A stretch of DNA of 36,585 bases from Treponema sp. (GCA_009787695.1 WQSW01000011.1:1-36585); one strand, 5' to 3'; positions 1 to 23,569 are shown, counted from the first letter of the stretch. The notes: generated from the sequence alone by a model not told the origin. Translations and numbers: made by a program.

Positions 1-77
1 CCGGGAAGCAGCTGTTCGCTTAAATTTACCGCTATGAACTGCCCTTGCGTTACTTCGCTTTGTTTATATCTTGCCAT
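1..77 (-). mobile_element. IS1182-like transposase, N-terminal fragment cut by window edge
   Basis: The reverse strand from base 77 reads ATG then MARYKQSEVTQGQFIAVNLS followed by EQLLPG, with no stop before the window edge. From memory, a start of the form MA-[RK]-YK, then QGQFI, then QLLPG is characteristic of DDE transposases of the IS1182 type with a DUF772 domain. Only about 25 residues are visible, so catalytic residues cannot be checked. The gene runs leftward out of the window. No terminal inverted repeat or target duplication could be fixed in the AT-rich 78-428 stretch. It marks the left edge as mobile-element territory next to the HD/Hsp90-like gene. Confidence 0.72.
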
Positions 78-428: not shown

Positions 429-3400
429 CTAACTACGCAAAGCAATAACATAATCATAGATAAATTGCTTATATTCTTCTTTTATTTTCTCATGAGAACA
501 CGAAGAATGTTTTTGTACATTTTGCAGGTAAATATAATCTATAATATTATTTACTTGTTCACACTGCATAATTCCTGCCACCGCTTCTTCTTTATTATCT
601 GCTTCAGTTATATATTTTCTGCGAGGTTCTCCGCTTATATCTGTGGGTAGAATGAGTATTAAAACCCAATAAGGAACATCAATATTTATATTGTTTATAC
701 TATAACGTAACTCATCTGTGTGAGGTACTAGTATTTTTGCATATGACTCAAAACCGAGGCACAAGCCCCAATCCGTTTTTTTCCACCATTTTTGTATTAC
801 ATCATTACTTGCAGTTATTGATGTAGCCTCATTGTTATCTACCTTCCTTAAGGTTACATAAAACTCGTCTTCTCTCAATTCTAATTTAGTCCACCGCAAA
901 TTCCACAAAAATGGAAATTTATCATAAAGTTGACTTGATAAATTATTAACAGGGCATACAAGTTGATCAGCAGAAAATATATCTAATAGATTCTCGCATT
1001 TATCAAAATGATAACCATATTCATAATCGGGCAAAATTCTAAAATAATCACTGGCACTGTGTAGAAATGTATCTACTGGTAAATTAAAACGCAAGGAACT
1101 CCAAAGCACCCATGCCCAATTATCATTACTTAATAAATTTATACAAGATGCATGTGGTAAATTAATATAAAATATATTATGAATTATATCTAGATTAGGG
1201 TCAGCATTTTGTCTATGGGTAAACGAAATGCTATATGTCGTATCAAAAAAAATATCACCCAAAATATTAGCATAATGTTTTTGGTTTTTATATCTTTCGC
1301 CAGTGTTGATACTACTACAAAAAGCCTTGCCATATACACTTCTTGATACTTCAAATCCTCTAGCGAAGCCGATGCTAAATTCCTCACAAAAAGGCTCTCC
1401 AAATTCATTAATAAAGCTTCTAGTAAGCCTCTTTGTGTATCTATCTCTGTGTGTTAAACTAAAGAAATTTGTCTGAAGATCAGCGAGTATTAAACTCAAT
1501 TCATGCTCAATCATACGACAAATTTCATGACCAAGACCATAACCCAAGACTTCTGCAAATGAGAAATTAGTATCATTGCCTAAGACTTGATCGACATCAC
1601 GCACTAATTTCATTAGAAGACCTGTAATGTTATTTAAGAAATGGTTACTGGTCCAAAGATTGAAAAATGCTTTGAAAAAAACTTCTCTATCACTAGCAAG
1701 GGGTGTTATTATATTAAGAATTGCATCTAAATGTTTTCGAAAAGCACCTTGATTATTAGATATATAACATCTAAATATAAAGATAAAATACAGAAGCTGC
1801 TCAATAGGAGCTGGTTCATTTCCATTTAGAATATCTTTTAAGTTTTTAAAAATAGAAGATACACTATTAGAGGCAACATCAAGACTGTTAGCAACTTCCA
1901 TTGCCGAAGCAAAAAACCTTGATGTTATATCTGTATTCATGACAGTAGAGAATAACTTTTGCCCAAATAATGCCAAAAATTTATTAACTTTATTCAATTG
2001 CAAGCATATTTCTGAGATCTTGTCTTGTTTTAACCTCTTTCTGTTTGCAGTAACAAATTCTTTTCCGTTACCAGCCATAAAATCAACATGAAGTATATGT
2101 AATTGAGATAATGTATAAAAGGCTTTTAATTCTTGATCACATAAAGAAATCCCCATAAATGTAATATTTTTATATGGATACTTATCCCCTATCGGTGAAC
2201 TATTATATCTTCCAAATATCTCTGGTTGCAATACACACATCATCTGAAATGCGCGATCCCAAACAACGAAACGTAAAGGACGATGGCTGGTTATAGCGAC
2301 ATCATATCTTTCATCATGAAATTCCGAATATAAAGGTAATCCATCAAATAAAAAATTACGAATGTCCGAATCAAATAACTTGCCATATTCATCATGGTCG
2401 CATAGTTTACATGCGATTGGTTTTAATGAATCTTTCTCTAGTAATGCTATGTCTTTATCATATAAATAAACATCAAATAATGGACATATTACATTTTTTT
2501 TGATAAAATTGCTTAAAATATCTAAAACTGGATTGTCTAATTGTTTTTCGTAAGGCAAAGAGACTGATTTTTCTTTTTGTATTTTTTCTAAATCTATATC
2601 CAAAATAACACTGGTTCCTTCCTGTGTAATGTTTTTATCAGGGCGAGAAAAGACAAATCCATTTCCACGCCCTGAATGCAAGACTATAATATGGGACTCA
2701 TCTTTTGAACAAGTTTCTATGCGAAAGCTGTTAGCAACTGCGAAAACTGAGTGCAATCCAATACCAAAACTACCAGAAGGGCGAAGCCATGCGGGCATAG
2801 TTTCAAAACAATCTTGATATTTTCGACTTTGCCAGCTAGATCCAGTTTGTATAATTTTATTTTTAATATCCGCATAAGTAATACCGATACCATTATCGTA
2901 GAATGTTACTTCTGCCTTCTTTTTCTTCCTGTCATATTTTACTGAGATTTTTATACTATAATGATTGTATATTTCTTGACAATCAATAAAATCAAATGGC
3001 ATTAATGTAGCTTTGTTATCACGTTTTTCTTTTGGTATTAACTTTTCAAACCAACCGTTTTTCATATTTAGATCGTGCCACATTTTTAACTTTAACGCAT
3101 CTAAACTATTTTGTATTAATTCGCGGACGAAGGTTAATGGGTCATCATAGAGGCTATATCCCTCAATTAATTCAAACGCTTTTTCTCTTGAAAAATTAAA
3201 ACGAAGATCATCTAAAGTAATCTGAAGCTCTTTTCTATTCACATTTATACTAGGGGTAAATTCAGGAACATCTTTTTTTATATCCACAGGAAAAATCATA
3301 TCTCTGTATTGAGAGAATTTTGTTAGATCGGAATTCAGCATGTTATACCAGTTTACATGCTGGTATACAATTTGCTGACAAAAATCTTCTTTTTCTGTTT

Positions 3401-4313
3401 CTGTAAAATGATGTTCATTGGGTAAATTTTGTTTTATATCATCAAAATTAATTTTTGCCCGCATAATTATTTTTTCATTGTCAATCGATGGATCATCCAT
3501 TGTTTTATGCTTGTAGTAATGCTGTGCACTAAGTAAAGGTAACAAGCCAAACTGCGAGATTGACATCTCATTAAAACGACCTCTTTGCACATCGCATAGA
3601 TCACCCAGTCTAAGCAAGGCTGCCGCAAGACGCGGATGATAATCCCCATATGAAGGTATGGGGAATTTTTTGTGGTTAAGCTCCTTGTCAAATATGCAAT
3701 CAAAGTCGAGCGCATGCAACTCAACAATCTTTCCAACGCTTGACCATATATTTTGAAAAGAATCAGGAATCGTGACTGCGAATAGTTCAGATATTGATGA
3801 TTTTCCTTCAGCAATAATTCTCGAACGATTTGCATGACTTCTTCGGAAAAATTCCGCTGTTAATTGTATGACATAATATTTTATTAACAAGGGATCAACA
3901 TCTCTATAACTGTTTCCCACCATTTTTGAAGCTAAGCGCAAGTCTTCATCGTAGCCAGTTTCACACGACCTCAAAAAACTCTTAAATGCTTCTGATCTCC
4001 AGATTTCTTTTTCTTCCTGATGACTTATAAGCATACCTATATCGTGTAAATAAACAGAAACTAGTATCAACCAAATATCTCCGACGGATAATTTTGAAAT
4101 GCGCTCATCCCCTAGTATTCTTTCTATGTTATCAATTATATTTTGGATATGAGAATTGTCATGACGACTATAATGAGGAAAGGAGTTCGCTACAGCAGGA
4201 AGGTACTCACTTACTCGGCTCTTTATTGTGCTGAATATGCCATCTAATGTTGCTAAATTGGGATCTTTCCTTGTTAACTCAAGTAGCTTTTCTTCTAATT
4301 TCGACAAAGCCAA
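429..4313 (-). CDS. HD phosphohydrolase-Hsp90-like ATPase fusion, candidate conflict/defence protein
   Basis: About 1,295 residues. Numbering is from the GTG at 4322; I prefer the TTG at 4313 because an AGGGGG Shine-Dalgarno lies 8 bases before it and there is no in-frame ATG for 100 residues. Residues 45-330 form an HD domain: HYSRHDNSH (H54, H58), YLHDIG (H93-D94), H163 and RLGDLCD (D241). Residues about 385-580 form a GHKL/Hsp90-type ATPase: N-box RELIQNSLDAL (E401, N405, D408), G1 DNGIG (476-480) and G2 SGSFGIGLHS (from 516). The remaining 700 residues hold no domain I recognise, apart from a conserved-looking NRKRL near 770. From memory this resembles the HD-CE plus HATPase architecture predicted in bacterial conflict systems. 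It stands alone, beside a transposase, and looks more AT-rich than the downstream genes. Inferred role: an ATP-gated nucleotide hydrolase or phosphatase triggered by infection. Confidence 0.8.
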   Translation of the reverse strand: MALSKLEEKLLELTRKDPNLATLDGIFSTIKSRVSEYLPAVANSFPHYSRHDNSHIQNIIDNIERILGDERISKLSVGDIWLILVSVYLHDIGMLISHQEEKEIWRSEAFKSFLRSCETGYDEDLRLASKMVGNSYRDVDPLLIKYYVIQLTAEFFRRSHANRSRIIAEGKSSISELFAVTIPDSFQNIWSSVGKIVELHALDFDCIFDKELNHKKFPIPSYGDYHPRLAAALLRLGDLCDVQRGRFNEMSISQFGLLPLLSAQHYYKHKTMDDPSIDNEKIIMRAKINFDDIKQNLPNEHHFTETEKEDFCQQIVYQHVNWYNMLNSDLTKFSQYRDMIFPVDIKKDVPEFTPSINVNRKELQITLDDLRFNFSREKAFELIEGYSLYDDPLTFVRELIQNSLDALKLKMWHDLNMKNGWFEKLIPKEKRDNKATLMPFDFIDCQEIYNHYSIKISVKYDRKKKKAEVTFYDNGIGITYADIKNKIIQTGSSWQSRKYQDCFETMPAWLRPSGSFGIGLHSVFAVANSFRIETCSKDESHIIVLHSGRGNGFVFSRPDKNITQEGTSVILDIDLEKIQKEKSVSLPYEKQLDNPVLDILSNFIKKNVICPLFDVYLYDKDIALLEKDSLKPIACKLCDHDEYGKLFDSDIRNFLFDGLPLYSEFHDERYDVAITSHRPLRFVVWDRAFQMMCVLQPEIFGRYNSSPIGDKYPYKNITFMGISLCDQELKAFYTLSQLHILHVDFMAGNGKEFVTANRKRLKQDKISEICLQLNKVNKFLALFGQKLFSTVMNTDITSRFFASAMEVANSLDVASNSVSSIFKNLKDILNGNEPAPIEQLLYFIFIFRCYISNNQGAFRKHLDAILNIITPLASDREVFFKAFFNLWTSNHFLNNITGLLMKLVRDVDQVLGNDTNFSFAEVLGYGLGHEICRMIEHELSLILADLQTNFFSLTHRDRYTKRLTRSFINEFGEPFCEEFSIGFARGFEVSRSVYGKAFCSSINTGERYKNQKHYANILGDIFFDTTYSISFTHRQNADPNLDIIHNIFYINLPHASCINLLSNDNWAWVLWSSLRFNLPVDTFLHSASDYFRILPDYEYGYHFDKCENLLDIFSADQLVCPVNNLSSQLYDKFPFLWNLRWTKLELREDEFYVTLRKVDNNEATSITASNDVIQKWWKKTDWGLCLGFESYAKILVPHTDELRYSINNINIDVPYWVLILILPTDISGEPRRKYITEADNKEEAVAGIMQCEQVNNIIDYIYLQNVQKHSSCSHEKIKEEYKQFIYDYVIALRS

Positions 4314-4860
4314 AACAACCACCCCCTAAATACAACACCTACCGTAACATTATACAATATTTCTATTTCTTTGATCAACTAACCCTGCCCAGCATCCACG
4401 AAAATTAATTTCCGTTTGAAGGTTGACTCCAGTATCCTGCTTCTTGAAAACCAGTTGTTATCAACACGTAAAAATATACCAATGCATGGTTAAATGTACA
4501 AAAAATAGGTTGCCTAATGAGCAAACGAACAGGGATATACTTTGAAATGGAAAGATACATTTAGAAGGGCCTCATCCTGCTCTTTTGGTCAATTTTGCGT
4601 AGTGTTTTAACACACCCTAATCAGTTGTTTTATAAATTTAGCATAAACAATTTTGTGAAGACCCTCTGCGCAAACTACGGTTTTACGGAAGTCGAGCTTG
4701 CCGTAAGGCGGAGAAGCAGTTACCATATGTTGAAGTTGTAGAAAAAGTCATTTATTAACTATCATATTCCCTTAAAAAAATGTTACACGCCATTTAATAT
4801 TTTGTTTCATCAATTAATTTTTATTGCTCGTAACAGATGATTTTTAAATTATTACCTTCG
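4314..4860. other. AT-rich gap, no supported gene
   Basis: About 550 bases upstream of the HD/Hsp90-like gene and downstream of the HD-GYP gene. A plus-strand frame starts at ATG 4517, meets a stop at 4562-4564, then stays open to 4741, ending with a plausible but unrecognised basic tail. It may be the relic of a gene, but nothing identifies it. An imperfect hairpin (TTACGG-AAG, loop TCGAG, CTT-G-CCGTAA) lies at 4683-4706. It lacks a T-run and is not a convincing terminator. Confidence 0.35.
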
Positions 4861-5133: not shown

Positions 5134-6186
5134 TTAAATAAATTTATCTTTTATACCAAGAAATAAATCTGTTAAAACAGGATCAAAATGAATATTTTTT
5201 CCTTCTGAAATTATTTTAACCGCTTCTTCATGCGTAAACGCTTTTTTATACGGACGTTCAGAAACAAGAGCGTCATATACATCTATGATTGCCATTATTC
5301 TTCCTTCTAAGGGAATGTTGTTTCCTTTTAAGCCGTTCGGATAACCGCTTCCGTCCCACTTTTCATGATGATTTAATGCGAATATTTTCGCGTAATTTAA
5401 TAATTCACTTTCTCCCGAATTCTTTTCTATACGTTCAATTATATTAAAGCCTATCAGAGAATGTTTTTTCATTTCATCAAATTCTTCTTTTGTTAACGGA
5501 CCCGGTTTTTTTAATATTTGATCGCTAATTCCTATTTTTCCAATATCATGTAATTGCGCTGATTGTAACAGTATATTAATATCCCAATTATTCACTGTTT
5601 CACTAAAAAGCCCTTGTCTGTTTATTTCGTCTAACAATATTCTAACTCCGTTTTTTGTTCTTTCTATGTGCCCTCCTGTTATATCGTCTCTGAATTCAAC
5701 TAAATTGGACATGGTTATTAATATTGCATTTTGCAGTTTAACCACTTTTTCGGTTTTTTCATTAACAAGATTTTGTAAATTGTTTTTCATATATTCAAGT
5801 TCTTCTGTCATTGAATTAAAGTCATCAAACAGAACTTCTACCATATCTTTTTTTCCGTCTTTCCGCATTGAAGAAACCCGGATAGATAAATTTCCTTTTG
5901 ATATTTCTTTAGCAGCCGCGCCAAGTATTTTTATCGGTAATGTCCATGTAAAATGACGGAAGATGCCTATACTGGCTGTTACTAAAGCCGCAGAAAAGAA
6001 AACAAATGCGATAAGCAAGTTTATGCCAAGCTGGGTATTTTCTTCAAAAATTTTACTATGTTCAAGTGATTGATAAATCCACATATGAAATCCGTTAAAC
6101 GCAGCCAATACAATAAAAAGAATAAAAAATTCTTTAACGTATCCGAATTTCGTATTAATTCGATTATCTTTCTCTTTTTTATTCAT
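5134..6186 (-). CDS. Membrane-bound HD-GYP phosphodiesterase
   Basis: Predicted cyclic-di-GMP phosphodiesterase. Positions are from an upstream ATG at 6273; the likelier start is its Met30 at 6186, because the upstream ATG has no ribosome site. Two membrane spans (about 45-67 and 83-105) enclose a short loop too small for a large periplasmic sensor. A HAMP-like linker follows (about 106-160), then a coiled-coil stretch, then the HD-GYP domain. The domain carries HDIGK (242-246) and the intact signature HHEKWDGSGYP (302-312), so it should be catalytic. The family hydrolyses c-di-GMP to pGpG or GMP. It diverges from ftsH across an AT-rich promoter region and has no operon partner. Confidence 0.88.
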   Translation of the reverse strand: MNKKEKDNRINTKFGYVKEFFILFIVLAAFNGFHMWIYQSLEHSKIFEENTQLGINLLIAFVFFSAALVTASIGIFRHFTWTLPIKILGAAAKEISKGNLSIRVSSMRKDGKKDMVEVLFDDFNSMTEELEYMKNNLQNLVNEKTEKVVKLQNAILITMSNLVEFRDDITGGHIERTKNGVRILLDEINRQGLFSETVNNWDINILLQSAQLHDIGKIGISDQILKKPGPLTKEEFDEMKKHSLIGFNIIERIEKNSGESELLNYAKIFALNHHEKWDGSGYPNGLKGNNIPLEGRIMAIIDVYDALVSERPYKKAFTHEEAVKIISEGKNIHFDPVLTDLFLGIKDKFI

Positions 6187-6364
6187 TAAAACACCGTTTA
6201 TTTCCTTTTTTAATATACACAAATATCTTAATAAAAACACTCTGGTTTCTGATACACTCACATAAGTATACACATTACAGAACTTATTAAAATGCTGATA
6301 ATCCTTTACTTTCTCAATTGACTTTTAAAGGTTTGTAACTTAGATATTCTCTTTTTACCTTCAA

Positions 6365-9808: not shown

Positions 9809-9816
9809 ATTTGGAT

Positions 9817-10983
9817 ATGGGGAATATAATTCGGCACGGTGTCGATATGTATAAACAAACAATGAATTCGAATGATGCTGCACAGCAGCTGCCCCAAGAA
9901 CTAATAAGAACCGTACAAGAAACAAATGAATCTGAACTAAAAGAATCTAAATACCGCCGTGTAGCAAAATTCCTGATTATCATAGGCAGCGAACAAGCTG
10001 CGGGCATCCTTTCAGAACTTGATCCCGATCAGGTAAGCGCAATTTCAAAAGAAATAGCTCTTATTAAAACAATCAGCCCGGAAGAGCGAATCGAAGTTCT
10101 TGAAGAATTTAAAAATTTATTTGCCAGATTAAGTTCTGCACAAACCGGGTTTGTAAAAACGGGGTTTGCAGAAACAGGGTTTGCAGGTTCTTCGTCCGGA
10201 GGAATTGAAACAGCAAGACGGATTCTTTACGCCGCAAAGGGAGCTGAAAAAGGCGAAGCGCTTCTTAATAAAGCTGTTCCCGAATCAAAAGAAAGCGCCT
10301 TTAGTTTTCTTGAAGATTTTTCGCCTGAGCAAATTGTCATGCTTTTAAAAGGTGAATCCGATCAAACTGCAGCAATGATACTTACACGCCTTTCATCAAA
10401 ACTTTCTGCAGGGACATTGAGCAAACTTCCTCCTAAAAGCAAGCCGGAAGTTTTAAGGCGCATGGCACATCAAGGGGAAGTAATGCCGGAAGTGCTTCAG
10501 CAAGTGGCAGAGGCGTTTAAAGAAAAAGTAAGGCATGTTTCAGGCGGTGCGAAAGATGTAGAAATAGACGGAATGCAGCGTCTTGCGGCAATTTTAAAAC
10601 AGGGTGATTATTCTTTCGGCGACAGGCTTATCAACGAACTTGAAGCAGAAGATCCCAAAATAGGAAAGGATTTAAAAGAAAAACTTTATACTCTTGATGA
10701 CATTATCAATACGGTTGATCGTCCCATTCAAGAAAAATTAGCAATGATGTCTGAAAGCGAAATTGCAATTTTATTAAAAGGCAGAAGCAAAGAATTTTCC
10801 GAAAAAATTCTTTCTTGCGTATCAGCAGGAAGAAGACAAGTAATCCGCGAAGAGTTTGAAGTTTTGGGCGCAGTATCAAAGCGCGATTGCGATGCCGCCG
10901 CTAAGGAATTTCTTTCATGGTTCAGGCTTGCCCGCGAAAGAGGCGAAATTATACTTTATAGCGATGAGGATGTTGTTTTATGA
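9817..10983 (+). CDS. fliG1: Flagellar motor switch protein FliG paralogue (FliG1 type)
   Basis: About 388 residues with FliG architecture. The N-terminal part has YRRVAKFLIIIGSEQAAGIL and the ELDPDQVSAISKEIA helix seen in FliG N-domains. An FLEDFSPEQIVMLLKGESDQ segment matches the middle-domain EHPQ-type region. The C-terminal part has LYTLDDIINTVDRPIQEKLA, as in the FliG torque domain, but that domain lacks the full charged motif of the canonical motor FliG. Spirochaetes carry two FliG proteins, and the divergent one (FliG1) affects rotation of one filament end in Borrelia. A linker of three TGF-type repeats is encoded at 10144-10188. Start choice is uncertain: TTG 9811, ATG 9817 and ATG 9847 are all in frame. 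The stop overlaps the M16C gene's ATG. Confidence 0.82.
   Translation: MGNIIRHGVDMYKQTMNSNDAAQQLPQELIRTVQETNESELKESKYRRVAKFLIIIGSEQAAGILSELDPDQVSAISKEIALIKTISPEERIEVLEEFKNLFARLSSAQTGFVKTGFAETGFAGSSSGGIETARRILYAAKGAEKGEALLNKAVPESKESAFSFLEDFSPEQIVMLLKGESDQTAAMILTRLSSKLSAGTLSKLPPKSKPEVLRRMAHQGEVMPEVLQQVAEAFKEKVRHVSGGAKDVEIDGMQRLAAILKQGDYSFGDRLINELEAEDPKIGKDLKEKLYTLDDIINTVDRPIQEKLAMMSESEIAILLKGRSKEFSEKILSCVSAGRRQVIREEFEVLGAVSKRDCDAAAKEFLSWFRLARERGEIILYSDEDVVL
10144..10188 (+). repeat. 15-bp minisatellite inside fliG1 (three copies)
   Basis: Three consecutive 15-base units encode TGFVK, TGFAE and TGFAG. The units share the core GGGTTTG and differ at a few bases. They sit in the linker after the FliG N-domain. 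Because the unit is a multiple of three, copy-number change would keep the frame. Confidence 0.8.
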
Positions 10984-13900
10984 GCGAAAAATCAAATTTG
11001 CCCAAACAGAATTTGCAAAAAGGGCAAAAACTTGACAGCGGTTTTGTCATTTTAGATATAGTTAAATTAGAAGAATTAACAACCGGCTCTTCTTCGGAAC
11101 CGTACGGAATTTGGGCTAAACATGAAAAATGCGAAGCAGAAGTTTTTCATGTTTTAAATGATGACAGTGAAAATCTTTTTTCGTTTTCTTTTGCAACTTT
11201 TCCTGAGGATAATACCGGTGTTGCGCATATTCTTGAACACTCAGTTCTTTGCGGTTCAGAACGCTATCCTTTAAAAGATGCGTTTATTACACTTGCGCAG
11301 GGAAGTTTGCAAACTTTTTTAAATGCATTTACCTTTCCGGACAAAACAGTTTACCCTGCAAGTTCAACTAACGAACACGATTATTTTAACTTGATGTCCG
11401 TATACGGTGATGCGGTTTTTAATCCTTTAATTCCTGAGTGGACATTCATGCAGGAAGGTCACAGGTTGGAATACAACGAAGACGGCGAATTGTCTGTTAC
11501 AGGCGTTGTTTACAACGAAATGAAAGGCGCTTATTCTTCTATGGATTCTTATACCGCTCTTTGGGTTGAAAAATCTGTAATGCCGGACACACCTTATTCA
11601 TTTGAATCAGGAGGCGATCCGCTTGATATTCCGCAGTTGACTTGGGAGGGATTGAAAAAATTTCACAGGACACGCTATTCTCCTGCAAATTGTAAGATAT
11701 TCCTTGCAGGCAATATCCCCACAGAAAAGCAGCTTGCCTTTTTAAACGATGAATTTTTTTCCCGCATGAGCGCAGGTAAAGCCTGTAATCCTATCGGGAA
11801 AGCCGAACGCTGGAAAGAACCGAAAAAAATTCATATAAATTGTCCTGCAGGAAGTGAATTAAAACCTACAATCTATCTTTCATGGTTATGTTCCGACATT
11901 CTTGATGTCAACGAAAATATTGCATTATCAGTCCTTACTGAAATTCTTTTTGGGCATGACGGCTCTCCTTTAACAAGAGTTCTAACCGATTCAGGTTTCG
12001 GCGAAGATGTTGAATCAGGTTTGGACGTAGAAATAAGGGAAACAATTTTTATTGCCGGATTAAAAAATGTAAACATTCAAGAGAATAATATAGAAAAGAC
12101 GGGCGAAGCTGTTAAATCTCTTATTATGAATGAATTGCTCAGATTGGAAAAAGAAGGTATCCCGCCGCAAGAAATAGAAGCGGCTCTGTTGACAATAGAA
12201 TTTTCGCAGCGTGAAATACGCCGTTCAAACGGACCTTTTTCTCTTGTGTGGATGCGCCGCGCATTGCGTACGTGGCTTCACGGCAGTAAGCCATGGGAAG
12301 GTCTTTTAATAGAACCTGCTATTTCAAAAGTAAAAGAAAATCTTTTAAAAGATAATCGTTATTTTGAATCGCTGATTAAAAAATATTTATTAGATAACCC
12401 CCATTATGCGCTTGTTACAGTCGAACCAAAAGAAGGTTTTCTAACTCAGCAGGAAGAAACACTTTCTAAAAAACTTGCAAACATCGATAAAAATTTAAGC
12501 GAAGATGAACGCCGCTTAATAAAAGAAAAATCAGAAGAACTTGAAATAATACAAAGCGAACCTAATACACCGGAAGCGCTTGCATCAATACCTCATCTTT
12601 CGCGTAATGATCTTTCTTCCGAGATCGATTTGATTCATAGGAGGCACGAAGATTTAAACGGAGTGCCCGCTCTCTGTCATGATTTGCACACAAACGGAAT
12701 TACATATTTTGATCTTGCTTTCCCTGTTGATGTTATGAGCCTTGATGATTATCCATGGCTTACATTATTCAGCGGTGCGGTAATTTCTGTCGGTCTTCCG
12801 GGTATGGATTACGGCGAAGTGTCAAGTTTGATGGCGCGTACTGTCGGCGGATTTGATACGATTATAAATTCATCAACAGCTGTAAAAGGCACTCCCGCAT
12901 ATTTACAAACCGCATCAGGAAAATTTGATCTGTCGGGACGCGAGTGGCTTTTGTACAGAATAAAATGTCTTGATGAAAAAATCGCGCCGTCATTGGATTT
13001 GGCTCTTCGATTAATTCTTGAAGCGGATCTCAATGACAGCCGCCGTATAAACGATCTTATTTTAGAATTAAAAACCGAAACTTATTCCAGTTTTGCACAT
13101 GCCGGTCATCTTTATGCATCCGGCAGAGCGGGACGGGGATGTTCACGTTCCAAAAGAGCGGAAGAAAAATTGGAAGGAATTTCGCAGGTTGAATTTATAA
13201 GCCGTCTTGTAAAAATGGATACCGATCAAGTAATTGCCAAGCTGCTTGCGATACGGGAAAAGATTAATGGTGCGGGGTTAATTGTAAATATTACAGGAAG
13301 CTCCAATAAAAACGCTTGTTCGGAAGCGGCAAAAAGGTTTTCCCGATTCGGAGCGCCTGTGCCGCGTCTTTCTGTTACAGATGATGAACCAAAGAATACG
13401 GCGGAAGTTTTCGCCTCACAATCTCTTCAAGTGGGGTTTGCAGCTTTAGCGCTTAATGCCGCACCTTTTGATACCGTTGAACAGATGGCAGAAAGCGTGT
13501 TAACGCATCAGCTTTCCACAGGAGTGTTATGGGAAGATATACGCATGAAAGGCGGCGCTTACGGGGCTTCCATAAATAACGACAGTATTGAAAACTGTGT
13601 TTCTTTTGCAACTTACCGCGATCCCAATCCTCTGCGTTCGTTAGATGTAATTTCGGAAATTTTAAAAAACAACTGCGATAAATCGGAATATTGCGAATGT
13701 ACAGAAGATAACCTTGTTAAAAATATTATTGGCTGTTATTCGAAAGAGACAAAGCCGAAAACAAGCGCGAAAAAAGGCGTTTTAGATTTTATCCGGTTTT
13801 TATACGGTTATGAAGACTGCTTCCGCAAAAGAAAATTGGAACGCCTTATCAATCTTTCTGCTGATGATATTTCAAATGCGTTTACTTCGCTTTCTTCAAG

Positions 13901-13994
13901 AACACAGAAAGGACCTGTTATTATCGGCGGAACGAAAATCGCAGAGCAGGCGGCGGCGGCATTGGGAACAGAAGTTAAAATACTGCCTGTTTAA
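10980..13994 (+). CDS. M16C presequence-protease-like zinc peptidase
   Basis: 1,004 residues, the usual length of the M16C (PreP/Cym1) group, in which one polypeptide carries four homologous domains closing round a substrate chamber. The inverted zinc motif is HILEH (His83, Glu86, His87) with the third ligand Glu180 in VVYNEMKGAYSS. The C-terminal half has the RMKGGAYG-type signature (DIRMKGGAYGA) expected in these enzymes. It should degrade short unstructured peptides. No signal peptide is seen, so it is probably cytoplasmic. The ATG overlaps the fliG1 stop as ATGA, implying translational coupling; why a peptidase should be coupled to a flagellar gene is unclear. Its stop overlaps the stop of the convergent gene. 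Confidence 0.92.
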   Translation: MSEKSNLPKQNLQKGQKLDSGFVILDIVKLEELTTGSSSEPYGIWAKHEKCEAEVFHVLNDDSENLFSFSFATFPEDNTGVAHILEHSVLCGSERYPLKDAFITLAQGSLQTFLNAFTFPDKTVYPASSTNEHDYFNLMSVYGDAVFNPLIPEWTFMQEGHRLEYNEDGELSVTGVVYNEMKGAYSSMDSYTALWVEKSVMPDTPYSFESGGDPLDIPQLTWEGLKKFHRTRYSPANCKIFLAGNIPTEKQLAFLNDEFFSRMSAGKACNPIGKAERWKEPKKIHINCPAGSELKPTIYLSWLCSDILDVNENIALSVLTEILFGHDGSPLTRVLTDSGFGEDVESGLDVEIRETIFIAGLKNVNIQENNIEKTGEAVKSLIMNELLRLEKEGIPPQEIEAALLTIEFSQREIRRSNGPFSLVWMRRALRTWLHGSKPWEGLLIEPAISKVKENLLKDNRYFESLIKKYLLDNPHYALVTVEPKEGFLTQQEETLSKKLANIDKNLSEDERRLIKEKSEELEIIQSEPNTPEALASIPHLSRNDLSSEIDLIHRRHEDLNGVPALCHDLHTNGITYFDLAFPVDVMSLDDYPWLTLFSGAVISVGLPGMDYGEVSSLMARTVGGFDTIINSSTAVKGTPAYLQTASGKFDLSGREWLLYRIKCLDEKIAPSLDLALRLILEADLNDSRRINDLILELKTETYSSFAHAGHLYASGRAGRGCSRSKRAEEKLEGISQVEFISRLVKMDTDQVIAKLLAIREKINGAGLIVNITGSSNKNACSEAAKRFSRFGAPVPRLSVTDDEPKNTAEVFASQSLQVGFAALALNAAPFDTVEQMAESVLTHQLSTGVLWEDIRMKGGAYGASINNDSIENCVSFATYRDPNPLRSLDVISEILKNNCDKSEYCECTEDNLVKNIIGCYSKETKPKTSAKKGVLDFIRFLYGYEDCFRKRKLERLINLSADDISNAFTSLSSRTQKGPVIIGGTKIAEQAAAALGTEVKILPV

Positions 13995-16090
13995 GTTGCT
14001 GCAGGCGGAGAGTTATTGGATTTCTTTAAGGCATCTTTAAAAATTTGATCTGCATCTAATTTTTGATCCACACCGAACATCGGAACAATTCCTTCTTCTT
14101 TAATGCTTCTGAAAAGAGGTCCGGGGCGGTTTTGATATGCCCAGCTGTTTTCATTGTTTACAAGGTAGTCCAATAGCGTAACTGCCGACAGCGAGAAGAA
14201 AATTAATGTAGCGTTAATTCTTTTTTCTGCAGAAAGCATTAAATCAAGCCGTTTTGATACGGGATTAGGTACTTGGAAATTGTATGTTTCCCATGGGTTA
14301 TTAATTCCTATACACTGCGCTCTTGTTGCAGCTCCTCCGGCACGTATCCCTTGATTTATTCCGTTAGCTACACTTGTTAATGTTTTCCGCAATTTTCTGA
14401 TTTCACTGTAAACAGGGACAATATCTTTTTTAGAAAACGGCGGCGGCCCCAATGATTCAAATTTATAATATGGAAGAAAATAAAGTCTTTTGATCCAATG
14501 GAGTTCGTTTAATGTTCTTTTTGCATAAGGTGTCGATCTTGCGTCTCCTGAATTTTCCAGCATACGGCAGTACTCTGTCAATCGCGGGAGGTAATCTCTT
14601 GAGAAGCTGTCCTCGATAAAACTGCGCCAGCTGTTTAGTGTTTCGGTAATTTCATCTCCCACTCGTAAAGGATTTCCGTCAGCTCCTGTGATAATACTAA
14701 AGTTTACAGAGCGCAACCCTATAAAAAGATCATCCAATATGTTAAGCAGCACAGCAACCTGCTGAACAGGATCGGTTCTGGCGATTAATTCATATCCATG
14801 TCTCATGTTGTAAACATTGGCAAAATACGGATAAAGATCGGGGTATTCTTCCAGCTTTGTCCAACCTGCTTTTGGAAAGAGGCTTTCCAATGCACCGCTG
14901 CTTTGTTCCAGAGCTTTTTTCTGCGCTTTATCAAAATCTTCTTTTGCTTTTTTTTCATTTATTTCTTGTTCATTTTGATCATCTTCTTCTGTAAGAAGTT
15001 CTTCGTCTAATTCTTTATTATCTGTCGCTTCTTCTTCATTCAGCTCTTCTTCGCTGACTTCTTTCTGAATAGCTTCTGTGTCGATGGTTTCTAATTGCTG
15101 CGGGTTTAAATCTTCTGAGTTTAATTGATCTGTTTCATTAACATTTAAAAGAGCCATAAAGCGTCTGCGTCTTTCAATAAAGAAACGTTCATAAACTATA
15201 AAACGATCAGAAAGCAGTTTCATCAATAAAGGATATAAACCAAACTGAACATTTCTTCTTATATCGCCGAGATAAGAAATAATGTTGCGGATAATGTCCT
15301 GATATTTATCTTTTGCTTCCATAGGGCTTTCTATGTAAAGGATTTTATAAATTAATTTAAAAGCTGTTTTAATATTTTCTGTATTTAAATCGTCAAGAAT
15401 AAAGAGCGGTTTAAAAATACCTTTTAAAACATCAGTAAAATCTGAAAGTTTTACCGTACGCGGATGAGACTGTAATTCAGCGATGTTTTTTGCAAGCGTT
15501 TCTATGTCCCAGCTTCGCATGGTATCTAAAACTTTATAAACAAAGGGAGATGCTCTTTTTAATTGAACATTACGTTTTCTGTTACTTTTTGGAAAGAGAT
15601 TTCTTGCCGCTGTTACAAGTCTTTCTATCTTACGGTAATATTCATTCATGCGGACAGTTACAAAACGAGGGTTTATATAGTCTACGGGTTCTTTAAAAAA
15701 AGAAAAAATAGAAGCCAGAACCTGCATAGAATTTTTTATCTCGAACATAAGTTGTCCCGCGTATTGATCAATTTTTATCCTTTCTGAATAACTGAGTTTT
15801 ACAGGAGAGGTAGGATCGTCTCCGGGAAACGGTCCCATTTGTTTGGATTTTGTTCCTTTTTCTTCGTCCGGCGCTAAATCGATTCTGCGCCGTTTTTTTC
15901 CGCCTACAACGACATCGACAGTTTCTTTTCTGACAGGTGCGCTTCTTTCTGTACCTACTTCGCCGCCCAGAATTTGAGCCATCCGTTTTGCTTCTGCGTC
16001 ATCTGTTACGCCTAATTTATCCCGAACTTTTCCAAGTTCGCCGGGTGCGTAAATTGCATTTTTTGAAGATGCGTTGTTTTTCTTTGCCAT
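13991..16090 (-). CDS. Large uncharacterised cytoplasmic protein
   Basis: About 699 residues, unrecognised. I chose ATG 16090 over the GTG at 16096 because AAGG lies 8 bases before it. There is no signal peptide or membrane span. The N-terminal 90 residues are charged and contain KKRRRIDLAPDEE. Residues about 95-330 look helical, with YAGQLMFEIKNSMQVLASIF and many Arg/Lys. A Glu/Asp-rich low-complexity segment lies near 335-385 (DEELLTEEDDQNEQE). The last 300 residues are again helical, with a late hydrophobic stretch (NATLIFFSLSAVTLLDYLV). It follows the DUF2804 gene after a 2-base gap, so the two are almost certainly co-translated. It could be a spirochaete-specific scaffold or a regulator; function is not assigned. 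Confidence 0.8.
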   Translation of the reverse strand: MAKKNNASSKNAIYAPGELGKVRDKLGVTDDAEAKRMAQILGGEVGTERSAPVRKETVDVVVGGKKRRRIDLAPDEEKGTKSKQMGPFPGDDPTSPVKLSYSERIKIDQYAGQLMFEIKNSMQVLASIFSFFKEPVDYINPRFVTVRMNEYYRKIERLVTAARNLFPKSNRKRNVQLKRASPFVYKVLDTMRSWDIETLAKNIAELQSHPRTVKLSDFTDVLKGIFKPLFILDDLNTENIKTAFKLIYKILYIESPMEAKDKYQDIIRNIISYLGDIRRNVQFGLYPLLMKLLSDRFIVYERFFIERRRRFMALLNVNETDQLNSEDLNPQQLETIDTEAIQKEVSEEELNEEEATDNKELDEELLTEEDDQNEQEINEKKAKEDFDKAQKKALEQSSGALESLFPKAGWTKLEEYPDLYPYFANVYNMRHGYELIARTDPVQQVAVLLNILDDLFIGLRSVNFSIITGADGNPLRVGDEITETLNSWRSFIEDSFSRDYLPRLTEYCRMLENSGDARSTPYAKRTLNELHWIKRLYFLPYYKFESLGPPPFSKKDIVPVYSEIRKLRKTLTSVANGINQGIRAGGAATRAQCIGINNPWETYNFQVPNPVSKRLDLMLSAEKRINATLIFFSLSAVTLLDYLVNNENSWAYQNRPGPLFRSIKEEGIVPMFGVDQKLDADQIFKDALKKSNNSPPAAT

Positions 16091-16092
16091 AT

Positions 16093-17139
16093 TCACATCC
16101 TTAAAAAAAGTTTTTCTCCCATTCCAAAGAGATCCTTTATTTTTATTTTTTCACCTTCCGAATTAACCAACATTCCGTTGTAAGTTCCCACAGAGGCGAT
16201 AAAATCAGCTTTTGTAAAAAGCAAATTTGACACGCCTTTGTTTTGTTCAATAGGAGAAAATGTTAAATCAACCATACCCTCTATATCTTGGATATTCCAA
16301 TTTGACTCAGGACCGTTAGGCATTGTAATGAGTACAGGCGGTAATAGAGTTAATTTTCCATTTACCCATAAAGCGTTTTCGTTGTTTTTATTTGTCTCCT
16401 TAGTTTGATTTTCGGCAAGATGGAAACCAAAATGTTCTTTTTCTTCGTTTAAACTTGTTGCATTGCACATGGTTGTTTGCATATTATACGGGAAAAAACC
16501 TTTATAGTCACAGAAAAATCCGGAGCAAGTGTCTTGTTTAAATTCAATTTGATTTTCCTCAAAAACCATGCTGCCATGAACAGGAGTCAGCGTTTTAAAT
16601 GCATACATAGAACGGCGCTCGGAAAATCCGAGAGAAACTGTCATTGGGGTAGTCTCTTGCGTAACATTATATTCAAGATGCACAGTTAGCGAAGGATTTT
16701 TCCGTGTTGATTCTATATTTAAATAAAGTTTGACGGTATTTGTGTCCAGCCAATTATGAATTTGGAAAAAAAAGTTTGATGAACGGCTTTCTACAATAGA
16801 GTTTGACAAGCTTTGCGGAAGCTGCCAGCCGGAAAAAGATTTCTTTTTTATAAAAAGGTATTTCTTCTTGTTTTTCTTGTCATAAAGCAGAACTTGAACC
16901 ATTTGGTAAAGTTTTATATTACAAAAAAGCGCTTCCAGCAGATAGGAATCATTCTGAACGGTAAAACATTGCCATTCTTTAATTCTGCAATCTCTTAGCC
17001 AGCGCGGAAAGGGGTAATTGTAAGGCTTGCGTATTTCCAGTAAATCCGCTTTTTCAAAAGCTTTGTTCCATGTCCCAAAGACAGGTCTACCGTCTTTTAC
17101 AGGCGAGGCAATTGGGGATAGTATTTCCCTACTATACAT
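16093..17139 (-). CDS. DUF2804 domain-containing protein
   Basis: 348 residues. Length and pattern match DUF2804: an N-terminal DGRPVFGTWNKAF element, a W-rich start to the first domain (RWLRDCRIKEWQCFTVQND), repeated beta-rich segments, and a C-terminal WNIQDIEGMVDLTFSPIEQ stretch typical of the family. The family has no established biochemical role; its beta-sandwich prediction has led to comparison with lipid- or carotenoid-binding folds. No signal peptide is seen. It is the first gene of a two-gene unit with the large unknown protein, whose start follows its stop by 2 bases. A perfect inverted repeat sits just before the start codon and there is no clear Shine-Dalgarno. Confidence 0.65.
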   Translation of the reverse strand: MYSREILSPIASPVKDGRPVFGTWNKAFEKADLLEIRKPYNYPFPRWLRDCRIKEWQCFTVQNDSYLLEALFCNIKLYQMVQVLLYDKKNKKKYLFIKKKSFSGWQLPQSLSNSIVESRSSNFFFQIHNWLDTNTVKLYLNIESTRKNPSLTVHLEYNVTQETTPMTVSLGFSERRSMYAFKTLTPVHGSMVFEENQIEFKQDTCSGFFCDYKGFFPYNMQTTMCNATSLNEEKEHFGFHLAENQTKETNKNNENALWVNGKLTLLPPVLITMPNGPESNWNIQDIEGMVDLTFSPIEQNKGVSNLLFTKADFIASVGTYNGMLVNSEGEKIKIKDLFGMGEKLFLRM

Positions 17140-20170: not shown

Positions 20171-23100
20171 ATGCCATCATTAAACGAGCTAAAAGAATTT
20201 AAAGCCTCGTTCCACAACATTGCAAATGAAAGGAAAGATGTCATTTCCAGAAATTTGCCCTTTGATGACATGGCTCTCCCCGAAAAAGACGCGCCGTCCT
20301 TTGAATATTCGCGTAAAGATAATATGCCCGGCACTCCGATACCGTCTCTTACCAAAGACGAACCTTCGGCAGACGATTTAAGCAACGCTGATGCAAATAC
20401 AGAGGACGTTTCCAACGAACAGTTCGATTCTGACGAGCCTTTTGATTTTAGCGCATTACTTAACGATCCGGGAGAAGCAGCTCCCGTTGATGATATGTTC
20501 GATTCACAGACCGATACAGATTTAAATCAAACTGAGTTTGACCCAGACCCTGAATTAAACAGCTTTTTAAACGGTTTAGATCCAAGCGAAAACGATAAAC
20601 AAGCAGTAGAAGATGACGGCTCTTCATTTCTTGCCGATCTTTTAAATGATACTCCGCAGACAGAAAGCCAACCTCCGTCAAGTAAAGACGAGGATTTACC
20701 CGAAGATGACAGTTCTTTCCCAGAAGATTTGTTGTCAGGATTTTCCGAAGAAATGGAATCATCATCAGATGCAGATATCCCTGAGGAAGATCATCTTGAT
20801 GATTTTCCTGATGCGATAGATATGGGCGGTGAAAACCAGAGCGGCGATATGGATACATCTTTTAATATGCCGGATGATTTTCCTCTGCCGATGGACGAAT
20901 TTTCTGAAGATTCGTCTGTTGATGATCTTGACGGTGACAGTATCGACATGGGAGGCGAAACCCGTACAGGTGAATTTACGCAGTCAGATATAAGCGATGA
21001 TGACAGTTCCTCTCTGGACGGATTGGATTTTCCAAGTGATGACAGCAGTTTTCCAAGCAACGACAGTTTTGCAGATGACGGCGGAATTCCAAGTGACGGC
21101 GGCTTTCCCGCCGATAGCGGCAGTTTTTCAGATGATGATCCCTTATCGGGATTGGATTTTCCCGGCGGTGACTCTGACGAAGATCCGCTTTCCGGTTTGG
21201 ACTTTCCCACAGGAGATGATGATGCAAGCGGCGGTATGGACTTTCCCGCTCAAACAGCATCTGAAGATGATATTTTAGGCGATCTTGGTGATTTAGGCGG
21301 TGACTTTACATCAGATTCAATCGATTTAGATTTAGGGGATACATCAGTATTAGATGACACTCATGACAGCGGGAATGATGATTTTGTTATGCCCGAGCTT
21401 GATATGTTTCTTGATAAACCAAAAGACATAGCAATCGATGTTCCTGTTAAAAAAAGATTCTCTTTCGGGCGAAAGAAAAAACCTGCCGAAGAAGCTCCAA
21501 GTATCAGCGATGTAGAAGAAATTTCTTTAAGTCAAGATGATGTTAATAAATTACTGCAAACATTATCAGTGTATCCTTTAAATTTAAGAATTGCCTGCGA
21601 AGAAGCAATTGCAGAGCAGGTAATTTTACCTCAGCAATTATCTAAATTAATCAGATTTCTTGTTACAGGCGCTCCTGTAAAAGAAACTGCAGCGCTTGTA
21701 GAAGAGATAACCGGTAAGCCGATTGTTATTCCGAAAAGTTTTGAAAAAAGTACAGGCGCGGCATTTGAAGCGGAACAAGCAAGTTTTGCGTATATTTTTG
21801 TTCATAATTTTCTTCCTGTTTTTAGATTGGTCGCCGTTATTGTTGCTTTGGCAGCTTCGGTTGCTTATCTTTCGTATCGATTTATTTATATACCTCTTAA
21901 AGCGGAATCCTTGTATAAACGCGGTTATGAAAGAATTTTTGCAGGGGAATATCAAAGGGCAAACGATCTGTTTCATCAAGGTTTTACCTTGCATCGGAAT
22001 AAAAAATGGTTTTATGCCTACGCAGAAAATTTCAGAGATCATCGGCGTTATCTGCTTGCCGAAGGCAAATACGATGAACTTTTAAGATACTACCCCAGAG
22101 ATAAAAAAGGCGTTTTAGATTACGCCGATATGCAAACAAATTATTTATTAAATTACGATAAGGCAAATAATCTTCTTCAAAAAGAACTGCTTGATTATGC
22201 GCCTAATGATATGCAGGGTCTTCTTGCAGCAGGCGACAATTTTCTTGCATGGGCGGATTCTGATCCTGAAAGATTCGGTGACAGATACGAAGATGCCCGT
22301 TTCTCTTACGCAAGGGTGCTGGAAAATTACGGCTGGCAAGCTCCTGTTCTGGAACGTATGCTTAAATATTTTATCCGCACAGACAATTTAAAAGAAGTTC
22401 TTGAGCTAAGAGTGTGGTTTGAAAACGATGAAAAAAGACGCAAAATGACAACGGAATCTCTTGCAGAGCTTGGCGGTTATCTTTTAGACAAGCAAATGGA
22501 AAAACCGGTAGGAGTGCCGAACCCTTATATTGAAAGTATAGAAAGCGTTCGTGTCATGCTTTTAAAAGCCATTGCAGAAGACCGGTATCTGCCCGAATCT
22601 CATTATCATCTTGCGCGTTATCATAAAAATCTCGGCAACACTTACGAAGAAAGGCTTACTCTGGAAAACGCTATCCGCGCATTTGATTTAGCAAAAAAAG
22701 AAAATGTTAAACGCCGTCTTTACCGCGTCGATGCACATTATCGTTATTCGCAGCTGCTTGTTAACAACAAAGAATTCTTCCCTGCAGAAACTCAAATTGT
22801 ACGGGGCATAGAATTATACGAAGAATATCTTACTCGAAATTTGATACGCGGTTCTCCTCAACTCGGCCAGCTTTACGCCGCTAAAGGCGATTTAGAGTTT
22901 TACACCAAAACAGGTGACAAAACCGCTGCAACAACAGCGTTGAACGATTACCGTAATGCAGAAAGATACGGATATACGCCTCCTGATATGCAGTACCGAA
23001 TGGGAGCGGCATATTATCAGCTTGAAGATTGGGGGAACGCTCTTACATATCTTTTCAGGGCTTCTGCAGAAACGCCTTACAACAGACGGATGCTTTATGC

Positions 23101-23569
23101 ACTCGGCAATGCGGCTTATAAAAGAGGCGATTTTTATGTCGCGCAAGGTTATTTCAGCCGTCTTTTGGATATCCTTGAAAACCAGCGTATCAGGCTGCCT
23201 GTTCTTATGCCTAATGACAGCATTGAATTCCTCGAAGTTGGTGAACGCCTTATGATGGCGCGTAACAATGCAGGGGTTGTTTATGAAGCTCTTGCCGAGC
23301 AGACAGGAAACCGCGAATACCGCTCCAGAGCGATGGCGCTTTATGCGGAGTCTGCCCGTGCATGGGATGCAATTACCCGTAACCCTGTCACAATGACCCG
23401 TATGCGTCTTTCAGAAATACCCGGCGCGCCCGGTATCAATCTTGGCTATTTAAATGCTAACAACGCTCTGCGCCCAACCAGCAACTACAATCCCAGCATC
23501 TTTACCCGTATCGACAGAGACGGTTTAGAACCTTCGCATTGGGAACAAATCGCATCTTTTGGGAATTAA
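20171..23569 (+). CDS. flcA: Periplasmic flagellar collar protein FlcA candidate, TPR type
   Basis: 1,132 residues in three parts. Residues about 1-440 are cytoplasmic, disordered and very acidic, with repeated motifs: IDMGGE at about 214 and 255, and DPLSGLDFP twice near 325-345. Residues about 445-540 are a small ordered helical domain. One membrane span (about 548-573, VFRLVAVIVALAASVAYLSY) leads to a periplasmic TPR array of about 550 residues (for example LYKRGYERIFAGEYQRANDL). The same layout of one span plus a large periplasmic TPR domain belongs to BB0326/FlcA of Borrelia, needed for the motor collar and stator assembly; the assignment rests on memory of that family. fliG1 in the same window fits. 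No Shine-Dalgarno is seen before the ATG. Confidence 0.68.
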   Translation: MPSLNELKEFKASFHNIANERKDVISRNLPFDDMALPEKDAPSFEYSRKDNMPGTPIPSLTKDEPSADDLSNADANTEDVSNEQFDSDEPFDFSALLNDPGEAAPVDDMFDSQTDTDLNQTEFDPDPELNSFLNGLDPSENDKQAVEDDGSSFLADLLNDTPQTESQPPSSKDEDLPEDDSSFPEDLLSGFSEEMESSSDADIPEEDHLDDFPDAIDMGGENQSGDMDTSFNMPDDFPLPMDEFSEDSSVDDLDGDSIDMGGETRTGEFTQSDISDDDSSSLDGLDFPSDDSSFPSNDSFADDGGIPSDGGFPADSGSFSDDDPLSGLDFPGGDSDEDPLSGLDFPTGDDDASGGMDFPAQTASEDDILGDLGDLGGDFTSDSIDLDLGDTSVLDDTHDSGNDDFVMPELDMFLDKPKDIAIDVPVKKRFSFGRKKKPAEEAPSISDVEEISLSQDDVNKLLQTLSVYPLNLRIACEEAIAEQVILPQQLSKLIRFLVTGAPVKETAALVEEITGKPIVIPKSFEKSTGAAFEAEQASFAYIFVHNFLPVFRLVAVIVALAASVAYLSYRFIYIPLKAESLYKRGYERIFAGEYQRANDLFHQGFTLHRNKKWFYAYAENFRDHRRYLLAEGKYDELLRYYPRDKKGVLDYADMQTNYLLNYDKANNLLQKELLDYAPNDMQGLLAAGDNFLAWADSDPERFGDRYEDARFSYARVLENYGWQAPVLERMLKYFIRTDNLKEVLELRVWFENDEKRRKMTTESLAELGGYLLDKQMEKPVGVPNPYIESIESVRVMLLKAIAEDRYLPESHYHLARYHKNLGNTYEERLTLENAIRAFDLAKKENVKRRLYRVDAHYRYSQLLVNNKEFFPAETQIVRGIELYEEYLTRNLIRGSPQLGQLYAAKGDLEFYTKTGDKTAATTALNDYRNAERYGYTPPDMQYRMGAAYYQLEDWGNALTYLFRASAETPYNRRMLYALGNAAYKRGDFYVAQGYFSRLLDILENQRIRLPVLMPNDSIEFLEVGERLMMARNNAGVVYEALAEQTGNREYRSRAMALYAESARAWDAITRNPVTMTRMRLSEIPGAPGINLGYLNANNALRPTSNYNPSIFTRIDRDGLEPSHWEQIASFGN

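What the first reader, a model, noticed from the sequence alone, without database searches (positions are those of the whole stretch)
429..4313. HD phosphohydrolase fused to an Hsp90-like ATPase: candidate stand-alone defence protein
The sequence shows intact HD residues (H54, H93-D94, D241) and an intact Hsp90-type Bergerat ATP site (RELIQNSLDA, DNGIG, SGSFGIGLHS) in one 1,300-residue protein. Known HD enzymes in immunity act on nucleotides; Hsp90-like ATPases can gate effectors by ATP-driven movement. Linking the two, with a 700-residue unassigned C-terminus that could sense a trigger, and placing it beside a transposase in AT-rich DNA, suggests a single-gene conflict system. From memory the HD part resembles the domain called HD-CE in comparative studies of conflict systems. 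Its biochemical activity is, as far as I know, undescribed.
Basis: partly seen in the sequence, partly recalled or inferred. Interest (0 to 1): 0.75.

Follow-up and report, generated by a model that had tools for sequence, protein, structure and literature searches.

The report
HD hydrolase driven by Hsp90-like ATPase
A Treponema-like bacterium carries, in a recently opened chromosomal gap, a rare horizontally moving gene for one large protein that joins a phosphodiesterase-like HD enzyme to an Hsp90-type ATP engine; relatives sit in phage-defence hotspots, so it is probably an uncharacterised anti-phage protein.

Summary
The N-terminus is Pfam HD-CE (E 2e-37). So about 200 of the "700 unassigned" residues are the Hsp90 middle domain; the last ~500 remain unassigned and diverge fast. 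HD and ATP-site residues are essentially invariant in about 75 homologues. The HD part is closest to class I cyclic-nucleotide phosphodiesterases (weak, E 1e-4). The gene is accessory: 7 of 200 family genomes have a strong HD-CE gene; it lies where relatives have polA next to ftsH; its nearest kin are Bacillota. Homologues overlap hsdS of type I R-M operons, sit in the gpA-Q defence hotspot of P2-like prophages, or adjoin DUF4231/SLATT 2TM genes. Most likely an ATP-gated HD hydrolase acting in phage defence, a new member of a known but apparently untested family. "Single-gene system" is unproven: the contig ends 428 bp downstream inside an IS1182-like fragment.

The parts
429..4322 (-). HD-CE/Hsp90-type ATPase fusion gene, 1,297 aa from GTG 4322 (or 1,294 aa from TTG 4313, which has an AGGGGGTGG ribosome-binding site)
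3435..4181 (-). HD-CE phosphohydrolase domain (P0001 residues 45-293); conserved H51, H55, H90-D91, R157, H160, H200, D238, D241, R246
   Evidence: closest solved relatives are class I phosphodiesterases, residues 18-99
2574..3236 (-). Hsp90-type N-terminal Bergerat ATPase domain (residues ~360-580): E398, N402, D405, D473-x-G475-x-G477, GxFGIG 514-519
1944..2573 (-). Hsp90-type middle domain (residues ~580-790) with conserved R758 aligned on the catalytic Arg motif of Hsp90
429..1943 (-). Fast-evolving C-terminal part (residues ~791-1294), no assignable fold; only the far C-terminal helices look shared with shorter homologues
1..77 (-). First 25 codons of an IS1182-like transposase gene, cut by the contig end; related decayed copies elsewhere in the genome
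4323..5133 (.). 811-bp AT-rich stretch upstream of the gene, without gene-length ORF, tRNA or Rfam match
5134..6273 (-). HD-GYP-type protein (379 aa), not next to ftsH in five relatives; part of the variable segment, one of about 15 related genes in the genome
6407..8362 (+). ftsH, right border of the variable segment; in three relatives polA lies directly upstream, here polA is at the start of contig C29

Best explanation
A mobile, accessory anti-phage (conflict) protein in which an Hsp90-type ATP-driven clamp controls an HD metal-dependent phosphodiesterase/phosphohydrolase. Shown by sequence and model: one chain with an intact HD active site, an intact Hsp90 N domain plus middle domain with the catalytic Arg, and a variable C-terminus. 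Inferred: the protein dimerises; infection is sensed through the variable C-terminus or the middle-domain cleft; ATP binding closes the N domains, as in Hsp90 and other GHKL enzymes, and that movement pairs or unmasks the HD domains; the HD domains then hydrolyse a nucleotide (a pool nucleotide or a signalling nucleotide) and so stop phage or cell. In the branch with DUF4231/SLATT partners the same switch probably feeds a membrane effector. Defence role about 0.75; HD as the ATP-gated catalytic output about 0.55.
For: HD ligands and ATP-site residues essentially invariant over about 75 homologues from at least eight phyla. Hsp90 N+M match to HtpG 10-362, E 6e-26, with R758 on the Hsp90 SRE motif; AF2 pLDDT 85, pTM 0.86; the 50 Foldseek hits listed are all Hsp90, about 450 columns. 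HD-only profile finds only class I phosphodiesterases in the PDB, with HDxxH on their HNxxH and HD on HD. Accessory: strong HD-CE (E below 1e-20) in 7 of 200 family genomes, while PreP is in 40 of 40 genus genomes. Polymorphic site: the polA-ftsH pair of L144, L147, L149 is split here. Transfer: tree puts it with Bacillota, SH-aLRT 99, while another Spirochaetota member (L002) sits with enterobacterial and prophage copies. Defence context: hsdS overlap in L044, L124, L125; type IIG methylase 17 bp away in L060; D12 methylase in L047; RloB/AAA_21 in L059; MNT-HEPN in L055; DUF4231/SLATT in L035, L049, L052, L062, L068; gpA-Q hotspot of P2-like prophages in L117, L118, a locus shown to hold anti-phage systems (PMC9122126). 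Near genes match 399 PADLOC families, genes six or more away 154. Precedents: VcSduA, a GHKL ATPase plus nuclease needing both sites (PMC12137116); Clover CloA, an HD dGTPase effector (PMC12265719).
Against: No experiment on any member was found. No defence gene is visible in this window; the 30 kb to the right look like housekeeping genes. PADLOC 2.0 has no model for it (only a weak GHKL match). The phosphodiesterase likeness is weak (E 1e-4, residues 18-99). The C-terminus has no assigned fold. The neighbourhood of homologues is diverse, so partners are suggestive only, and the near/far PADLOC comparison is crude. Active-site geometry and dimerisation were not examined.
Confidence: 0.55

Rival explanations
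1. The HD domain is not the killer but a messenger eraser or ligand-sensing regulator: it degrades a cyclic or oligonucleotide that holds a partner effector in check or that activates it, and the output is a separate protein (a DUF4231/SLATT pore in some relatives; in this genome unseen beyond the contig end) or the C-terminal part.
For: HD part nearest to cyclic-nucleotide phosphodiesterases; adjacent 2TM DUF4231/SLATT genes in five close relatives, some with overlapping or touching coding regions; a known 2TM effector is held inactive by a cyclic nucleotide (Panoptes, PMC12657230).
Against: Most relatives have no such partner; no DUF4231 match in this genome (although the control genomes also gave none); no nucleotide cyclase recognised next to the inspected genes.
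Confidence: 0.25
2. A non-immune stress or signalling protein: an Hsp90-like chaperone module steering a phosphodiesterase in ordinary regulation, carried on an accessory segment by chance.
For: Next gene is an HD-GYP protein; two relatives lie behind a histidine kinase and a receiver-like gene (L051, L065); no defence gene in the window.
Against: Very sporadic distribution and transfer, hsdS overlaps and P2 hotspot, fast-diverging C-terminus. HD-GYP relatives are many in this genome, so that neighbour says little.
Confidence: 0.15
3. A toxin or addiction module that serves the mobile segment itself rather than defence.
For: Borders carry IS1182-like repeats; relatives on plasmids and next to integrases or recombinases.
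Against: No antitoxin-like partner in this window and none recurrent in relatives; strict conservation of two catalytic sites in a 1,000-1,300-residue protein is unusual for a simple toxin.
Confidence: 0.05

Closest known systems
Pfam HD-CE (PF24391) with HATPase_c_3, including members in other genomes of the host family (L124-L127)
   Same: Same two domains in the same order; same catalytic residues
   Different: Those four are other HD-CE/HATPase forms (open frames of about 580-870 aa); the query belongs to the 1,250-1,300-residue branch with L034-L036; no function is tested for either as far as I could find
Hsp90/HtpG (N and middle domains)
   Same: Bergerat ATP site, middle domain, catalytic Arg motif; AF2 model matches the whole N+M span
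   Different: Preceded by an HD enzyme; profile similarity stops before the Hsp90 C-terminal dimerisation domain; large inserts, 14-21% identity
VcSduA / Shedu type I-D (paraMORC3), PMC12137116
   Same: Single protein in which a GHKL ATPase is proposed to control a fused catalytic domain; both sites needed for defence there
   Different: VcSduA has a C-terminal PD-(D/E)xK nuclease (DUF4263); here an N-terminal HD enzyme, no DUF4263 match
Clover CloA and defence dGTPases (PMC12265719)
   Same: HD metal-dependent hydrolase as immune effector
   Different: CloA is a dNTPase regulated by nucleotides and partnered by CloB; no ATPase module; the query gives no dGTPase-family match and is nearest to phosphodiesterases
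Class I cyclic-nucleotide phosphodiesterases (e.g. 5vyd, PDEB1)
   Same: H-x3-H then HD motif in register
   Different: Only residues 18-99 align, E 1e-4; equivalence of the other ligands (H160, H200) not shown; different organisms and architecture

Membership tests
HD-CE (Pfam PF24391) | Match above the curated cut-off | tested here: met
   129.6 bits against 27, E 2.3e-37
HD-CE (Pfam PF24391) | Intact HD metal-binding residues | tested here: met
   H51, H55, H90, D91, H160, H200, D238 conserved in the query and essentially all homologues
GHKL/Hsp90-type ATPase | Bergerat motifs (E/N/D, DxGxG, GxFGxG) | tested here: met
   E398, N402, D405, D473, G475, G477, G517, G519
Hsp90 family, N plus middle domains | Middle domain with catalytic Arg | tested here: met
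   Profile alignment to HtpG/Grp94 through the SRE motif; R758 in 73 of 76 rows with the segment; fold match
Hsp90 chaperone (HtpG) | C-terminal dimerisation domain and whole-protein match | tested here: not met
   NCBIfam 53 bits against cut-off 371; match ends before the C domain
Shedu (DUF4263) | DUF4263 PD-(D/E)xK nuclease domain | tested here: not met
   No such Pfam or PADLOC match
dGTPase/Clover CloA | dNTPase family match | tested here: not met
   No dGTPase-family match; HD profile finds phosphodiesterases instead
Class I cyclic-nucleotide phosphodiesterase | Full catalytic-domain similarity (PDEase_I) | tested here: not met
   Partial weak match only, residues 18-99, E 1e-4; no Pfam PDEase_I match
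Anti-phage defence system | Residence in defence or mobile loci across relatives | tested here: met
   P2 gpA-Q hotspot, R-M operons, SLATT and others in a substantial minority of relatives; own window shows none; enrichment against matched random genes not tested
Anti-phage defence system | Measured protection | not testable with these tools
   Needs phage challenge

The most novel reading that the evidence does not exclude
An immune enzyme of a new mechanistic type: an Hsp90-style ATP clamp that switches on a fused phosphodiesterase-like HD domain, with an exchangeable C-terminal sensor and, in some lineages, a membrane 2TM partner under the control of the nucleotide it cleaves.
Probability: 0.3. 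Interest if true: 0.75.

Novelty: new member of a known kind. Interest (0 to 1): 0.5.

Why it matters
The HD-CE domain and its fusion to an Hsp90-like ATPase exist as a Pfam domain and as unnamed database proteins, but I found no tested function. The present work gives the full engine (N and middle domains with catalytic Arg), a phosphodiesterase lead for the enzyme, a list of relatives in validated defence hotspots, and exact residues to mutate, so the function becomes directly testable. If the mechanism holds, it would show the Hsp90 ATP cycle used as a switch for a fused immune hydrolase, parallel to GHKL control of the Shedu nuclease.

Tried and rejected
E. coli carrier sought in 5,426 genomes with two gammaproteobacterial-type members, by DNA: no match. 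Structure of residues 576-1294: pLDDT 46, unusable. Search of C-terminal 515 residues for homologues among the collected frames: none beyond the query. DUF4231/SLATT in the own genome: no match, but the control rang nowhere either, so absence is not shown. A second HD-CE copy in the genome: none. RNA families, tRNAs and repeats around the gene: none of note. HD-GYP gene as synteny marker: rejected, about 15 relatives in the genome. Confirmation of the transposase start by plasmid search: no match; it rests on decayed copies in the same genome. Weak HD-CE matches in about 44 of the 200 family genomes are mostly ~510-540-aa frames that I take for RNase Y-like proteins and not as members (inference). 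Literature searches for HD-CE in conflict systems found nothing in the held library; the 2020 J. Bacteriol. paper I remember as a likely source of the 'CE' names is not held, so priority could not be checked.

Full report
WHAT IS THERE. The window is the left end of contig C11 of a 2.82-Mb genome whose gene content looks Treponema-like. The open frame lies on the minus strand, 4322..429, 1,297 aa from a GTG, or 1,294 aa from a TTG at 4313 that follows a good ribosome-binding site. It has no internal stop. Pfam finds HD-CE at residues 45-293 (E 2.3e-37) and HATPase_c_3 at 396-541 (E 2.5e-7). The gene is single in its genome.

HOW REAL THE ACTIVE SITES ARE. I collected homologues from GTDB genomes, viral contigs, plasmids and phage records and aligned 81. 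In every row that has the segment, H51, H55, H90, D91, R157, H200, D238 and R246 of the HD part, and E398, N402, D405, D473 and G477 of the ATP site, are identical; H160, D241, G475, G517 and G519 vary in at most three rows. Both sites are therefore under selection across at least eight phyla.

THE ATPASE IS A FULL HSP90 ENGINE (N PLUS MIDDLE DOMAIN). A profile of 51 members aligns with E. coli HtpG 10-362 and with Grp94 through the N and middle domains (E about 1e-26). The conserved motif with R758 (73 of 76 rows) lies on the Hsp90 SRE motif, whose Arg takes part in ATP hydrolysis (established knowledge for Hsp82 R380 and HtpG R336). An AlphaFold model of residues 1-790 has pLDDT 85 and pTM 0.86; the 50 best PDB matches listed are all Hsp90, over about 450 columns. 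Among viral models it also resembles phage rIIA proteins. That remainder diverges too fast for sequence search and gave no usable model (pLDDT 46).

THE HD PART. A profile of the HD part alone finds only class I cyclic-nucleotide phosphodiesterases among solved structures (best E 1.3e-4), with H51-x3-H55 on the HNxxH motif and H90-D91 on HD. This is a lead to substrate type, not a proof; the match covers residues 18-99 only.

ACCESSORY AND TRANSFERRED. In 200 genomes of the same family, strong HD-CE matches (E below 1e-20) occur in seven, with different sizes; four of the other six also carry an HATPase match. By contrast the neighbouring PreP gene is in 40 of 40 genomes of the genus. In relatives L144, L147 and L149 polA lies directly next to ftsH; in this genome polA is at the very start of contig C29 and ftsH is preceded by the HD-GYP gene and the gene studied here. 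Both broken ends carry related dispersed repeats, and the C11 end is the start of an IS1182-like transposase gene whose other copies are decayed. In the tree the gene groups with L034, L035 and L036 (SH-aLRT 99) inside a largely Bacillota branch, whereas another Spirochaetota member (L002) groups with enterobacterial, plasmid and prophage copies. More than one label change is no proof of transfer by itself, but the pattern and the polymorphic site agree.

NEIGHBOURHOODS OF RELATIVES. Confirmed by Pfam or PHROGs: hsdS overlapping the gene in L044 (with hsdM), L124 and L125; a type IIG methylase 17 bp away in L060; a D12 methylase 11 bp away in L047; AAA_21 plus RloB 3 bp away in L059; MNT-HEPN in L055 and an HNH protein in L115; DUF4231/SLATT 2TM proteins in L035, L049, L052, L062 and L068, of which L035 is one of the nearest relatives of the query. 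[quoted passage not shown] Genes within two places of the homologues match 399 PADLOC families, an equal number of genes six or more places away 154; the second set is still in the same regions, so this is a crude comparison. In this window itself no defence gene is seen, and the right-hand 30 kb look like housekeeping genes.

HOW IT MOST LIKELY WORKS. Shown: one chain, two intact catalytic sites, Hsp90 N and M domains. Inferred from Hsp90 and GHKL biology: ATP binding closes the dimer and this movement unmasks or pairs the HD domains. Inferred from context: the trigger is an invader. Inferred from the phosphodiesterase likeness: the output is cleavage of a nucleotide. The nearest tested parallel is VcSduA, in which a GHKL ATPase and a fused nuclease are both needed for phage defence (PMC12137116); the nearest tested HD effector is CloA (PMC12265719). 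The main rival is that the HD domain trims a signal that controls a separate membrane effector, as loss of a cyclic nucleotide does in Panoptes (PMC12657230).

MEMBERSHIP AND NOVELTY. It is an HD-CE protein and an Hsp90-type ATPase by tested features. It is not a Shedu system, not a CloA-type dNTPase, not a canonical HtpG and not a full class I phosphodiesterase (see table). HD-CE and the entry iHD-CE are already in Pfam, so the fusion is a new member of a known, apparently untested kind. I could not read the comparative-genomics paper in which I believe the name was coined; that point is from memory.

LIMITS. No experiment; assembly gap just downstream; single-gene status open; C-terminus unassigned; active-site geometry not examined; some neighbour names (Fic in L057 and L066, IS3, IS110, response-regulator-like, phosphoribosyltransferase-like, dynamin-like, HerA-like) were given by eye from the sequences.

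Noticed in passing
L051 7137-9860; L065 6639-9625: A histidine-kinase-like gene and a receiver-like gene lie directly upstream of an HD-CE/Hsp90 gene, a three-gene arrangement that suggests two-component input to the switch.
   Followed up: partly
L072 3627-6281; L043 7284-9823; L042 7305-9813: A phosphoribosyltransferase-like protein and a ~210-aa protein of unknown type precede an HD-CE/Hsp90 gene in a well-supported sub-branch (tree support 100).
   Followed up: partly
L035 519-3413 and 3510-7265: Two HD-CE/HATPase genes from different branches of the family lie head to head, 96 bp apart, followed by a SLATT gene, a dynamin-like GTPase and a HerA-like ATPase.
   Followed up: partly
L043 9905-13286: The C-terminal module seems to be split off as a separate overlapping frame (12654-13286), which suggests that it is an independent module.
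   Followed up: no
L128, L129 (own family): HD-CE without an HATPase match; in L128 it is followed by what looks by eye like a P-loop NTPase, so the HD part may be paired with different ATP engines.
   Followed up: partly
window 9811-10983 and 13991-16096: A FliG-like protein directly before PreP, and a 701-aa protein without Pfam match; both outside the finding.
   Followed up: no
window 20171-23569: An 1,132-aa frame without any Pfam match.
   Followed up: no
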